Assembly (NCBI RefSeq): GCF_001592435.1 | Contig: NZ_CP014750.1 | Coordinates: forward strand, 1,302,001-1,366,000 | DNA: 64,000 bases | Direction of reading: 5' to 3' | DNA from: Thermococcus peptonophilus | GTDB lineage: Archaea > Methanobacteriota_B > Thermococci > Thermococcales > Thermococcaceae | Shown: piece by piece, positions 49,035-53,024 of the stretch | Position numbering within the stretch: the stretch's first letter is position 1 | Layout of the letters: every line of letters starts with the position of its first letter | Program-made: the position numbers and the translations under genes | Notes under the pieces: generated by a model | Told to the model about the DNA's origin: nothing | What the model saw: the letters and a program-made list of their open reading frames with translations, nothing else | The model's database searches: none

Positions 49035-50255
49035 TTAAGTGTCCAGCAGTTCTTTTAGTACGTCCTTGGCGGTCTCAAGTATTACTTCTGGCTCTGCATC
49101 TACCTTCCCCCTAGCCAGGTTGTCGGTTCCACCACCCTTTCCGCCCAGCTTGGACGCTACTCGCTCAAAGAGCTCTCTCATTGAAACGTTTACACCCTCG
49201 TTTCTGGCGAAAAGTACGTAGTTCTTTCCTGCTACGAGCAAAACTGTCCCGGGGTTCTTTTCAACGAACTTCACCGCAAAGCCCTGGGCCTCTTTCATGG
49301 GTTCCTCTTCAATCAGGGTTGCTACTTTGACGTCTCCTATCTTCTCGGCCTTCTCCTGGATGTACTTGCCCTTCCATTCCCAGAGACCCCCTCTGAGTTC
49401 GTCTTTTTCTGCCTCTAGCTTGTCTATTGTCCCCTTAAGCTCCTTGATCCTCTCAACGAGCGGCGGGTTCTTGTTTGGCATCTCGTCAAGTGCTTCCCAG
49501 TAGTCCGATAAGATGCCGTTAAGCGCTCTCAACGCCCTGTTTCCTGCGACGAACTCTATCCTCCACAGCTTCCTGCTCTTCCGATAGAACCCGAGTATTT
49601 TGAGGAAGCCGATCTCGCGGGTGCTCCTCACATGGGTTCCGCCGCATGGTGTCGCATCAACGGTTCCGATTTTGACGATCCTTATCCTGTCGTGGACTTT
49701 GCTGACGTGCTTTCGCAGGATTCTCACAACGTCTTCCGGAAGGTACTGGTACTCCTCGATCTCCACCGGCAGGTCTCCCCAGATTGCCTCGTTTGTCTTT
49801 CTCTCTATCTCGTTTATCATCTCCCAAGTAAGCTCGCCCGAATAATCAATCTCGATCTTGTTGTAGTTCTCAAAGATCTGGAAGCCCGTGGTCTCGGCCC
49901 CGTAGAGTCCCTTGATTATTGCTGAAAGGATGTGTTGCCCCGTATGTTGCCGCATGTTCTCGTATCTCCATCCCCAGTCAAGGATCAGCCTAACTTCTTC
50001 CCCCGCCTCCGGCAGCCTTCCCTCTAACTTCCCTTCATGCCAGATCTCTTTTTTTCCGCTGACCTTTTCAACTAGAACTCTGAAGCCGCCACCCACTATA
50101 ATCCCCCTGTCAGATGGCTGGCCGCCGCCTTCCGGATAGAATATTGTTCTGTCGAGGAGAACCTTCACTCTCCCATTTCCAGCCGGCTCGACTTTCTCCA
50201 CCTTAGCAGTGGCTTCGCGAAGGTACGGGTCTTTGTAAAACAGCTTTTCAGTCAT
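49035..50255 (-). CDS. alaX: Alanyl-tRNA editing protein AlaX (long type)
   Basis: This 406-residue trans-editing enzyme hydrolyses Ser/Gly-tRNA(Ala). It has the N-terminal barrel, the zinc motifs HTGQH and CGGTH of the editing domain, a coiled-coil linker (residues about 265-300) and a C-terminal DHHA1 domain (GGKGGGTDNLARG). This is the AlaX-L layout known from Pyrococcus and Thermococcus. The start overlaps the stop of the upstream receptor-like gene by 4 bp. Confidence 0.93.
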   Translation of the reverse strand: MTEKLFYKDPYLREATAKVEKVEPAGNGRVKVLLDRTIFYPEGGGQPSDRGIIVGGGFRVLVEKVSGKKEIWHEGKLEGRLPEAGEEVRLILDWGWRYENMRQHTGQHILSAIIKGLYGAETTGFQIFENYNKIEIDYSGELTWEMINEIERKTNEAIWGDLPVEIEEYQYLPEDVVRILRKHVSKVHDRIRIVKIGTVDATPCGGTHVRSTREIGFLKILGFYRKSRKLWRIEFVAGNRALRALNGILSDYWEALDEMPNKNPPLVERIKELKGTIDKLEAEKDELRGGLWEWKGKYIQEKAEKIGDVKVATLIEEEPMKEAQGFAVKFVEKNPGTVLLVAGKNYVLFARNEGVNVSMRELFERVASKLGGKGGGTDNLARGKVDAEPEVILETAKDVLKELLDT

Positions 50256-51004
50256 TGCACATCACTCTCCTTCGAGTATTCGCTAACCATGGTTCTAAGA
50301 AGAGACGCAAGCTCCTTATTGTACCTGTCCTGCATCTCGGAGAACTTTTTGAGTGCGACGGCTATTCCGTTGAGCCTCTTTATATCGTTTACAATCTCTT
50401 CTTGCTCATTTGAAATCTCGCTGAGAACAGAGCTTATCTCAACTATCGTGCTGATATCCCTGCCAAGTATCTCTGTTCCCTCTTTTATCCTGTCCATGAC
50501 TGCCAGTGCGTCCCTCAGGGTCTCGAGCTGGTTCATGACTCTAGAGTTGAAGTCCTTTATCTCCTTCGCCAGCTCCATCGTCTGGACGGCCATCTTTCGT
50601 ATCTCTTCTGCCACCACAGCAAAGCCCCTTCCTGCGTCGCCTGCCCTCGCCGCCTCAATGGAGGCGTTTAGGGCAACGAGGTTTGTCTGCTTGGCAACGG
50701 TTGCTATCGAATCACTTATCCTGGAGACGTATTCAAGGTTCTCCACCAGAGTGTTGAACTCCTTTGCGAACGTTTCAAAGCGCTGGAAAAACGGGAGAAA
50801 ATCCCTCTGGAACGTTTCAAGCTGTTCCATGACCTCCGAGAGCTTTGAGATGTTCTCTATAATGGTCGTGTTGTTCTCCATAAACTGCCCACTGATTTCC
50901 TCTGCCAGTTCGCTGATTATCTTGCTCGACTCCTTGCTGGAAGTCTTTATCCTGACAGACAGCGCGAGTGCGTTCGAGGCTTTCTCGATGCTCTTGATGT
51001 TCAT
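50252..51004 (-). CDS. Short soluble chemoreceptor-like (MCP signalling domain) protein
   Basis: This 250-residue, all-helical protein has no membrane helix. Residues about 100-140 form the conserved receptor hairpin tip (AKQTNLVALNASIEAARAGD, then GRGFAVVAEEIRKMA). The N-terminal helices are too short for a classical sensor domain, so it may take its input from a partner, most likely the ODP-type protein encoded 9 bp upstream. CheA and CheW are not in this window. Confidence 0.88.
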   Translation of the reverse strand: MNIKSIEKASNALALSVRIKTSSKESSKIISELAEEISGQFMENNTTIIENISKLSEVMEQLETFQRDFLPFFQRFETFAKEFNTLVENLEYVSRISDSIATVAKQTNLVALNASIEAARAGDAGRGFAVVAEEIRKMAVQTMELAKEIKDFNSRVMNQLETLRDALAVMDRIKEGTEILGRDISTIVEISSVLSEISNEQEEIVNDIKRLNGIAVALKKFSEMQDRYNKELASLLRTMVSEYSKESDVQ

Positions 51005-51013
51005 GCTACCACC

Positions 51014-51781
51014 TCAGCGGAGCAGATCAACCCCGCACTTGAGGTTCTCAAGGAAGTCATAGAACCTCGGAATGTATCTCCTTGGAATTATTGCGCCGTG
51101 CTGTGGCAGTATGGCCTCAACATCTAGATGCCTCACCCTGTTGAGCCATGCCTTTATGGCCCTGTTGCTGGCCATGAGCCTCTCGTGGATTGGTCTCATG
51201 GCCTGTATGTGTTTTTCCATGCTTTCAACGACTATGTATGGCTCGTCGAGGAGGGCTATGCCGATGTCTCCCGTGAAAAGGAACTTGCTCCTGTGGTCGT
51301 ACACCGTGAAGTGTCCAGGGCTGTGGAGGAAATGTGCAGGGATGAACTCCAGCGTAGTAGCTCCAAAACTCAGGGTCTCACCCTCATCAGGAAGCTCATG
51401 GGTTACACTCCTGGAGTCTTCAAAGCCGAAGTGTGGCAAAAACCTTGTCCAGAGCCAGTGAGTAACTATCTTGGCGTTGCTTATCTCCCTCCACAGGGGC
51501 AAACTGCCGGCAACGTCTGGATCCTGGTGGCAGATGTACACGTACTCTATGTTCCTTGGGTCAACGTACTTGGAGGCGTTGGCGAGAACTTTGGAGAATA
51601 TCTTGTACCCTCCAGGATCGAGGAGGAAGCCCTTCCCTCTGCTGACTATGAGGTAGCTGTTGACGTCAACGTCGTTTCCTCCTTCTTGGGTGCCGAGGTA
51701 AACTACCATGTGTTCTTCATCCCTATAGAGGACGTGGTCTTTCCGAGGGTCGAGTCCCGGCTCTATGAAGTACTCTCCCAT
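51014..51781 (-). CDS. ODP/flavodiiron-type metallo-beta-lactamase protein (putative O2 sensor)
   Basis: This 255-residue protein has the di-iron metallo-beta-lactamase core of flavodiiron and ODP (oxygen-binding di-iron) proteins without flavodoxin. Ligands visible are H85-x-D87-x-D89, His153/157 (HSPGH), Asp172 (FTGDIG) and His228 (LPQHG); Val90 stands where FprA has His. ODP proteins in bacteria act with chemoreceptors as O2/iron sensors. GGAGGTG precedes the ATG at 51781. It is flanked by two receptor-like genes. Confidence 0.85.
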   Translation of the reverse strand: MGEYFIEPGLDPRKDHVLYRDEEHMVVYLGTQEGGNDVDVNSYLIVSRGKGFLLDPGGYKIFSKVLANASKYVDPRNIEYVYICHQDPDVAGSLPLWREISNAKIVTHWLWTRFLPHFGFEDSRSVTHELPDEGETLSFGATTLEFIPAHFLHSPGHFTVYDHRSKFLFTGDIGIALLDEPYIVVESMEKHIQAMRPIHERLMASNRAIKAWLNRVRHLDVEAILPQHGAIIPRRYIPRFYDFLENLKCGVDLLR

Positions 51782-51794
51782 ACACACACCTCCT

Positions 51795-53024
51795 TCAACT
51801 TAGTAACTCAATGAGTTTCTTTATCTTTCTATTTAATTCTTCAAGGTGTGCCGACACCTCTTCGGCAGAGGCCGTTATTTCTTCGGCAGAGGATGTTTCT
51901 TCTTCCATAGCTGCCATGGTACTCTCAATGTTATGAGATATCTTTTCAAGAACCTCCTGGAACTCATCTATAGACTCAGAAACTTCTTTGAGGTACTCAA
52001 CGAATTCTGTTACCTCCTCAGAATGGAAGCTCAAACTCTTGCTTATGTTCTCAAAGGAGCCAACGGCCTGGAGAATCTTGTCAATGTTTCTCTCTATTAT
52101 CTCTACTGTCTCCCTCGTTATCTTTTGGGATGCTTTAACCATTTCCTTTATCTTCTCTGCTGACCGTCTGCTGTCTTCGGCGAGCTTCCTAACCTCGTCA
52201 GCGACTATTGCAAATCCTCTTCCTGCTTCTCCAGCTCTTGCTGCTTCAATTGCGGCGTTGAGAGCCAGCAGATTGGTCTGCTTTGCGATCTGTGAGATGA
52301 CACCGACGTTTCTCGCAACCTCCTCGTTGGTGGATGTCATTTTGTGGAGGTATCCTCTCAGATCCTCAAGCTCCTCCTTTATCGCACCTAAAGACTTGCT
52401 CTCCTCCTCGCTCTCTCTGACAGTCTGGCTGAGACTCTCTCTTATCTCCTCTGCCTGGGTTACTATTCTCCCAACGTTTCCCACTATCTCTTCCAGATTA
52501 CTCCGTGATTCGCTTATCATCTCCCCGATTTCTTGGGTTCTAATGGATACATCCTGAGAGGCCTGAGAAATCTGGGAGATTGCCTCAACTACTTCCTTCA
52601 TTGATGAGTCTATGTCGCTTGTATGACTTTCCATCTCCTTGATTTTCTCCACTAGTGCTTGGATCCACCCCTCTTCGAGCAGGGCGTTTCCATTGACGAG
52701 TCTCCTCATGAACTCCACGATGAGCTCCTGATTATCTGCCTCTTTGAGGACGAGCGGTAGAATCTTCTCAACGACGGGCCTGTAATGAACTCTCCCAAAG
52801 TGGGCGAAGTCGAATCCATAGTCAAGCAGGTGAGCCTTCCCAGCCCTGAGGAGAGCGTCCTTGTTGAAGCTGTTATGGAATAGGTCTCTCATGTAGCTTT
52901 TCATAGCCTCCGCGTGCTTTCTCTTGGCCTCCTCTGATATGGGGAGCGTTCTGTGAACATCGTCTATTATCTGATTGATCTCGTGCCCAATCTTGCTGTA
53001 TATCTCCTCCAATGTCTTGGCCAT
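51795..53024 (-). CDS. Soluble chemoreceptor with sensor-globin-like N-terminal domain
   Basis: This 409-residue protein has no membrane helix. The C-terminal 280 residues are an MCP signalling domain with its hairpin tip at about 246-280 ([20 protein letters not shown]). The N-terminal part (residues 35-110) shows [14 protein letters not shown], similar to the IG-x2-H-x-R-I-G pattern around the proximal His of sensor globins, with His65 as the candidate heme ligand. The ATG at 53024 follows GGTGATTCTT. It heads the receptor-ODP-receptor cluster. Confidence 0.85.

What the first reader, a model, noticed from the sequence alone, without database searches (positions are those of the whole stretch)
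50252..53024. Receptor-ODP-receptor cassette: putative cytosolic oxygen-sensing chemotaxis-like module
Seen: two soluble MCP-type proteins flank a di-iron metallo-beta-lactamase protein of the ODP/flavodiiron type, all within 14 bp gaps on one strand. The larger receptor has a globin-like H-containing motif. Known: bacterial ODP proteins bind O2 at di-iron and control chemotaxis kinases. Inference: a strict anaerobe may use two O2-binding centres (heme and di-iron) feeding one signalling array. No CheA or CheW is nearby, so the output is open.
Basis: partly seen in the sequence, partly recalled or inferred. Interest (0 to 1): 0.75.

Follow-up and report, generated by a model that had tools for sequence, protein, structure and literature searches.

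The report
Archaeal oxygen-sensor and soluble chemoreceptor operon
A heat-loving, oxygen-shy archaeon carries an operon that pairs a known kind of iron-based oxygen sensor with a soluble chemotaxis receptor, plus a rarer extra receptor whose front end is predicted to fold like a globin, so the cell probably steers its swimming by oxygen or iron.

Summary
The three genes are real, on one strand, with 13- and 9-nt gaps; a fourth gene (AlaX-type tRNA editing) overlaps the last by 4 nt. The middle protein is a bona fide ODP (closest solved structures: the two ODP crystal structures, 5.6e-62). The genome is a Thermococcales archaeon with a complete che cluster about 1.2 Mb away, so the output is not open. 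Across 94 Thermococcales the conserved unit is ODP + short receptor: 30/30 ODP orthologues have the short receptor next door, and 27/30 of these genomes have CheA against 9/64 of the rest. The larger receptor sits in front in only 2 of 30. Its N-terminal domain (135 aa, four homologues) has no sequence link to globins, but its confident AlphaFold model matches globins, globin-coupled sensors best. Thermococcales surveyed in the literature lack heme biosynthesis, so heme is doubtful. The promoter carries two sites 12 bp apart resembling EarA (archaellum regulator) sites; in the own genome all five best matches lie before chemoreceptor/che genes. Verdict: a known kind of ODP-chemoreceptor module, archaeal and co-regulated with chemotaxis genes, with an unusual globin-fold receptor added. 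'Two O2 centres in one array' is plausible, unproven.

The parts
51795..53024 (-). MCP1: soluble chemoreceptor, 409 aa, N-terminal globin-fold-like domain + MCP signalling hairpin
   Evidence: PF00015 3.3e-35; canonical tip [25 protein letters not shown]-arm 150 aa with EEITASAEE methylation-type motifs
52620..53024 (-). N-terminal sensor domain of MCP1 (aa 1-135), predicted globin fold; invariant H24, H37, H65, H75, H80
   Evidence: AF2 pLDDT 91.6, pTM 0.83; Foldseek top hits globins, best globin-coupled sensors TM 0.60-0.64; homologues in four other Thermococcales genomes, one broken
51014..51781 (-). ODP: oxygen-binding di-iron protein, 255 aa, metallo-beta-lactamase domain only, no flavodoxin
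   Evidence: PF19583 3e-71; PDB 6qnm 5.6e-62, 6qrq 1.3e-59, HQDPD/H/D/H motifs conserved
50252..51004 (-). MCP2: 250-aa soluble receptor consisting of the signalling hairpin only, no sensor domain
   Evidence: PF00015 2.3e-28; closest solved chain 3g6b/3g67 soluble receptor 9e-17; 82% mean column identity among six orthologues
49035..50255 (-). AlaX-type alanyl-tRNA editing protein, 4-nt overlap with MCP2, conserved neighbour
   Evidence: tRNA_SAD 4.5e-13, AlaXM 5.9e-56 but below its cut-off; conserved order
53105..53124 (-). two tandem RTGTAGG sites, 12 bp apart (EarA-type), upstream of MCP1
   Evidence: TATGTAGGTTCTTATGTAGG; both sites conserved before the operon in 26/30 genomes; other chemoreceptor promoters
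53090..53096 (-). TATA box TTAAATA of the operon promoter
   Evidence: fixed distance from the tandem sites in nearly all orthologous promoters

Best explanation
This is a chemotaxis operon for oxygen/iron sensing in a Thermococcales archaeon, with EarA-type promoter sites. ODP binds O2 at its di-iron site and signals through the sensor-less receptor MCP2, whose hairpin plugs into the CheA/CheW array encoded elsewhere, so that CheA, CheY and CheF change archaellum switching (most likely O2 avoidance). In this genome and one relative a second soluble receptor, MCP1, with a globin-fold sensor domain, stands between the promoter and ODP and adds another input to the same array. Shown here: gene identities, conserved ODP-MCP2 pairing, co-occurrence with CheA, shared promoter element, complete che cluster. 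Inferred: O2/Fe binding, ODP-MCP2 contact, direction of response, ligand of MCP1, EarA as the binding factor.
For: ODP identity and conserved metal motifs. All 30 Thermococcales with the ODP orthologue have MCP2 directly downstream, in G069 a truncated one. CheA in 27/30 ODP+ against 9/64 ODP- genomes, Fisher p 9e-13; the paralogue ODP2 shows no such link, 10/31. Complete che cluster in own genome: CheW, MCP, CheR, CheY, CheB, CheA, CheC, CheC/X, CheD, CheF. G069 has lost CheA and CheW and its MCP2 lacks the first ~97 aa. Promoter: tandem RTGTAGG before the operon in 26/30 genomes; in own genome the five places with at most 1 mismatch all lie before chemoreceptor/che genes; in 352 kb of fetched loci every strict match lies at a chemoreceptor/che/ODP promoter; matches the published EarA motif (PMC10665913). 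Precedent: T. denticola ODP with its sensor-less MCP TDE2496, which modulates CheA (PMC7666581). MCP1 fold: control.
Against: No experiment. Co-occurrence counts are not corrected for shared ancestry. Three ODP+ genomes lack detectable CheA (one 79% and one 96% complete; one a likely real loss that keeps ODP and MCP1). An ODP paralogue in the same order is not tied to chemotaxis, so the ODP fold alone does not prove it. The Foldseek E-values for the globin match are 0.24 and above, and sequence profiles give no globin signal. The loci scanned are enriched for chemoreceptors.
Confidence: 0.68

Rival explanations
1. MCP1's N-terminal domain is a heme-binding globin (H65 proximal, H37 distal), so two O2-binding centres, heme and di-iron, feed one array.
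For: AF2 model pLDDT 91.6; 49 of the top 50 PDB matches are globins, with globin-coupled sensors incl. BpeGReg, AfGcHK, HemAT at TM 0.60-0.64, prob up to 0.99; viral library control only TM 0.40; helix lengths and order fit B-E-F-G-H; His65 near the end of helix F is invariant in four homologues and replaced by Tyr in a broken copy in G077.
Against: No residue-level alignment supports H65 as proximal; hhalign against globin-coupled sensors prob 2%, HMM scores not beyond shuffles; all seven Thermococcales surveyed lack hem genes (PMC3004389), so heme would have to be taken up.
Confidence: 0.35
2. MCP1's N-terminal domain has a globin fold but uses no heme, and senses another ligand or stress, as other globin-fold sensors do (stressosome RsbR, from my own knowledge; the HemAT globin domain binds ethanol without involving its heme).
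For: Globin fold without any hem genes reported for the order; HemAT ethanol sensing in which the heme is not involved is stated in the abstract of PMC7542364.
Against: Five invariant histidines in 130 residues, one at a proximal-like place, suggest a bound metal or heme.
Confidence: 0.4
3. MCP1's domain is just a helical bundle that resembles globins by chance; its sensing has nothing to do with globins.
For: Foldseek E-values not significant (best 0.24); no sequence signal.
Against: Matches are class-specific: nearly all of the top 50 are globins and sensor globins rank high; the viral-protein control gives nothing comparable.
Confidence: 0.22
4. ODP here is an O2/NO-detoxifying enzyme that happens to lie beside receptors.
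For: Relation to flavodiiron proteins.
Against: Lacks the flavodoxin domain; pairing with MCP2 in 30/30 and co-occurrence with CheA; two separate longer flavodiiron-type genes (403- and 410-aa frames) exist in the genome.
Confidence: 0.1

Closest known systems
ODP-receptor pair of Treponema denticola (TDE2498/TDE2496) and the solved ODPs (PDB 6qnm, 6qrq)
   Same: ODP with the same metal motifs, genetically coupled to a soluble MCP without transmembrane or sensor part (PMC7666581)
   Different: Archaeal, archaellum-driven, EarA-type promoter sites, AlaX as fixed neighbour, extra receptor MCP1
Globin-coupled sensors such as HemAT (aerotaxis receptor) and BpeGReg/DosC
   Same: N-terminal domain predicted to have the globin fold, joined to an MCP signalling hairpin; soluble
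   Different: About 130 aa, apparently no A helix, no sequence similarity, order without known heme synthesis; not in Pfam Protoglobin
Soluble sensor-less receptor of PDB 3g67/3g6b
   Same: Closest solved relative of MCP2, signalling hairpin only
   Different: MCP2 is coded in one operon with ODP
EarA control of the archaellum operon in Pyrococcus and Methanococcus
   Same: Motif A(C/G)(C/G)TACA(T/C) in repeats upstream of the promoter (PMC10665913)
   Different: Here the 12-bp-spaced pair sits before chemoreceptor, che and ODP genes, in either orientation; binding not shown

Membership tests
ODP (oxygen-binding di-iron protein) | Profile and sequence relation to solved ODPs | tested here: met
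   PF19583 240 bits vs cut-off 27; PDB ODP 5.6e-62
ODP (oxygen-binding di-iron protein) | Metal motifs HxDxD, H, D, H as in the solved ODPs | tested here: met
   HQDPD, AHFLHSPG, GDIG, PQHGA conserved
ODP (oxygen-binding di-iron protein) | No flavodoxin domain | tested here: met
   255 aa, beta-lactamase domain only
ODP (oxygen-binding di-iron protein) | Genetic coupling to a sensor-less MCP | tested here: met
   30/30 orthologues
ODP (oxygen-binding di-iron protein) | Binds Fe and O2, alters CheA | not testable with these tools
   needs purified proteins
Globin-coupled sensor (HemAT-like receptor) | Globin fold at the N-terminus | tested here: inconclusive
   Predicted model matches sensor globins TM 0.64, prob 0.99, but E 0.24
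Globin-coupled sensor (HemAT-like receptor) | Sequence similarity to globin sensors/protoglobins | tested here: not met
Globin-coupled sensor (HemAT-like receptor) | Proximal His and bound heme | not testable with these tools
   Invariant H65 is a candidate by helix order only; hem genes reported absent from the order
Chemoreceptor (MCP) | Conserved hairpin tip that binds CheA/CheW | tested here: met
   PF00015 over cut-off in both, tip sequence intact
EarA-regulated promoter | Repeated EarA motif at fixed distance from the TATA region | tested here: met
   EarA gene in genome, PF07381 8e-33
EarA-regulated promoter | EarA binds and activates | not testable with these tools
   needs a binding assay or deletion transcriptome

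The most novel reading that the evidence does not exclude
Thermococcales run an EarA-controlled chemotaxis regulon in which O2 is read by ODP-MCP2, and a few species add MCP1, a new minimal globin-fold chemoreceptor family (no A helix, unrecognisable by sequence) in an order that makes no heme: either a heme-free globin sensor or one charged with scavenged heme.
Probability: 0.4. Interest if true: 0.72.

Novelty: new variant of a known kind. Interest (0 to 1): 0.55.

Why it matters
It places an iron-based oxygen sensor, known from bacterial chemotaxis, inside the regulated motility programme of anaerobic hyperthermophilic archaea, which gives a genetically tractable test of how an anaerobe without heme genes senses O2. 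The promoter element offers a simple predicted regulon linking archaellum and chemotaxis genes. The globin-fold receptor, if confirmed, would extend globin sensors to a minimal form hidden from sequence searches.

Tried and rejected
Globin detection by sequence: Pfam, Protoglobin model over 94 genomes, PDB profile search, hhalign and HMM-versus-shuffle tests all negative; only the fold evidence was kept. Wider relatives of the MCP1 domain: one genome-contig scan found a single locus, again Thermococcales. Phylum-wide ODP search returned only Thermococcales, so the bacterial pairing rests on the paper. The idea that the three genes are a fixed cassette was rejected. The idea that ODP as such marks chemotaxis was rejected: ODP2 lies in a different operon and is not tied to CheA. 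The original ODP paper (PNAS 2019) is not held; its details would be from memory and are not used as evidence.

Full report
The genes. The window lies in a 1.896-Mb archaeal genome of the order Thermococcales (V-type ATPase genes alongside; the relative fetched is titled Thermococcales archaeon). On the - strand follow MCP1 (53024-51795), ODP (51781-51014), MCP2 (51004-50252) and an AlaX-type gene (50255-49035) that overlaps MCP2 by ATGA; the gaps are 13 and 9 nt. Pfam gives MCPsignal for both receptors and ODP (PF19583) for the middle protein. The best solved relatives of the middle protein are the ODP crystal structures 6qnm and 6qrq, with the metal motifs HQDPD, H, D and H shared. MCP2 is a bare signalling hairpin; its closest solved relative is the soluble receptor 3g6b/3g67.

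The output. The same genome holds CheW, MCP, CheR, CheY, CheB, CheA, two CheC-type proteins, another MCP, CheD and CheF at C1:145.5-158 kb, and eight chemoreceptor genes in all.

What is conserved. Among 94 Thermococcales genomes 30 have this ODP orthologue (74-95% identity to it outside the own genome). In all 30 MCP2 follows it directly, mostly in the order atpD - ODP - MCP2 - AlaX; one further MCP2 was found in an incomplete genome. MCP1 stands between promoter and ODP only in this genome and G069; homologues of its N-terminal domain lie elsewhere in G081 and G001, and broken in G077. So the cassette is a conserved ODP-MCP2 pair plus an optional receptor. The closest ODP (G024, 95%) lacks MCP1 there, so MCP1 was either lost in that line or gained more than once.

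Link to chemotaxis. CheA is found in 27 of 30 genomes with the pair and 9 of 64 without (Fisher p 9e-13, not corrected for descent). A second ODP family (about 42% identical, 31 genomes) shows no such link (10 of 31) and lies in another operon with two proteins without Pfam match. In G069, CheA and CheW are gone and MCP2 has lost its first ~97 residues, while ODP and MCP1 are intact. That is what is expected if MCP2 needs the chemotaxis array; why ODP and MCP1 persist there is unexplained.

Promoter. Upstream of the operon two RTGTAGG sites lie 12 bp apart at a fixed distance from TTAAATA. Of 30 orthologous promoters, 26 have both, 2 have one intact, 1 has both degenerate and 1 has none; the ODP2 operons examined have none. 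In the own genome the five best matches (at most one mismatch) to the 20-bp pattern all lie before chemoreceptor genes, one of them shared with the divergent che operon. In 352 kb of fetched loci every strict match is at a chemoreceptor, che or ODP promoter, although these loci are enriched for chemoreceptors. The half-site read backwards is CCTACAT, which fits the motif A(C/G)(C/G)TACA(T/C) reported upstream of the archaellum operon of Thermococcales, where EarA is the master regulator (PMC10665913). The own archaellin promoter has three such sites at 12-bp steps and an EarA gene lies nearby (the spacing read by eye). EarA binding at chemotaxis promoters is my inference.

MCP1's sensor domain. 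Four homologues, 42-70% identical to the first, share invariant H24, H37, H65, H75, H80. AlphaFold gives a five-helix domain (5-25, 31-50, 55-67, 73-95, 99-133), pLDDT 91.6, pTM 0.83, from four sequences. In the PDB 49 of the 50 listed matches are globins, led by globin-coupled sensors (BpeGReg, AfGcHK, also HemAT), TM 0.60-0.64, prob up to 0.99, but E-values only 0.24 to about 1. The same model against viral proteins gives TM 0.40 at best. Helix order corresponds to B, E, F, G, H of a sensor globin without A helix; this would put H65 at the proximal place and H37 on helix E (inference). Sequence methods find nothing. No hem gene is listed for any of seven Thermococcales in a published survey (PMC3004389), so heme would need uptake, or the domain works without it.

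Mechanism. Most likely ODP in its O2-bound state acts through MCP2 on CheA, as reported for T. denticola, where ODP is coupled to the sensor-less receptor TDE2496 that modulates CheA (PMC7666581). MCP2's C-terminal arm (134 residues past the tip) is shorter than that of the other receptors (161-165), MCP1's is 150; both keep the tip that binds CheA/CheW. MCP1 adds a second cytosolic input. O2 avoidance is the expected sign for a strict anaerobe, but this is a guess.

Verdict. The pair is a member of a known kind; the archaeal regulation and the globin-fold receptor make it a new variant. The strong claim of two O2 centres in one array stands as a testable proposal.

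Noticed in passing
G000 C1:895306, 147486, 609824, 1530254 and window 53105-53124; L109, L110, L111, L114, L125: A tandem 12-bp-spaced EarA-type element marks chemoreceptor, che and ODP promoters across Thermococcales: a candidate chemotaxis regulon.
   Followed up: partly
L054:2345-4222, L055:2640-4203, L056:3288-5162, L057:3343-5277: A second ODP family (ODP2) in 31 Thermococcales sits in a three-gene operon with ~104-aa and ~263-aa proteins without Pfam match, unconnected to CheA; function unknown.
   Followed up: partly
L061 (G069:C2:80500-91000): G069 lost CheA and CheW and the first ~97 aa of MCP2, yet keeps intact ODP and MCP1: chemotaxis decay caught midway, or another role for ODP/MCP1.
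   Followed up: partly
L062:3218-4497 (G077): Broken MCP1 homologue, split in two frames, in which the conserved H65, D72 and H80 are changed; the promoter element is still present.
   Followed up: no
window 49035-50255: AlaX-type tRNA-editing gene overlaps MCP2 and is a conserved neighbour of the ODP-MCP2 pair; reason unknown.
   Followed up: no
window 47565-48981: Two adjacent overlapping DUF257 genes (PF03192, 3e-72 and 3e-79), a family of unknown function.
   Followed up: no
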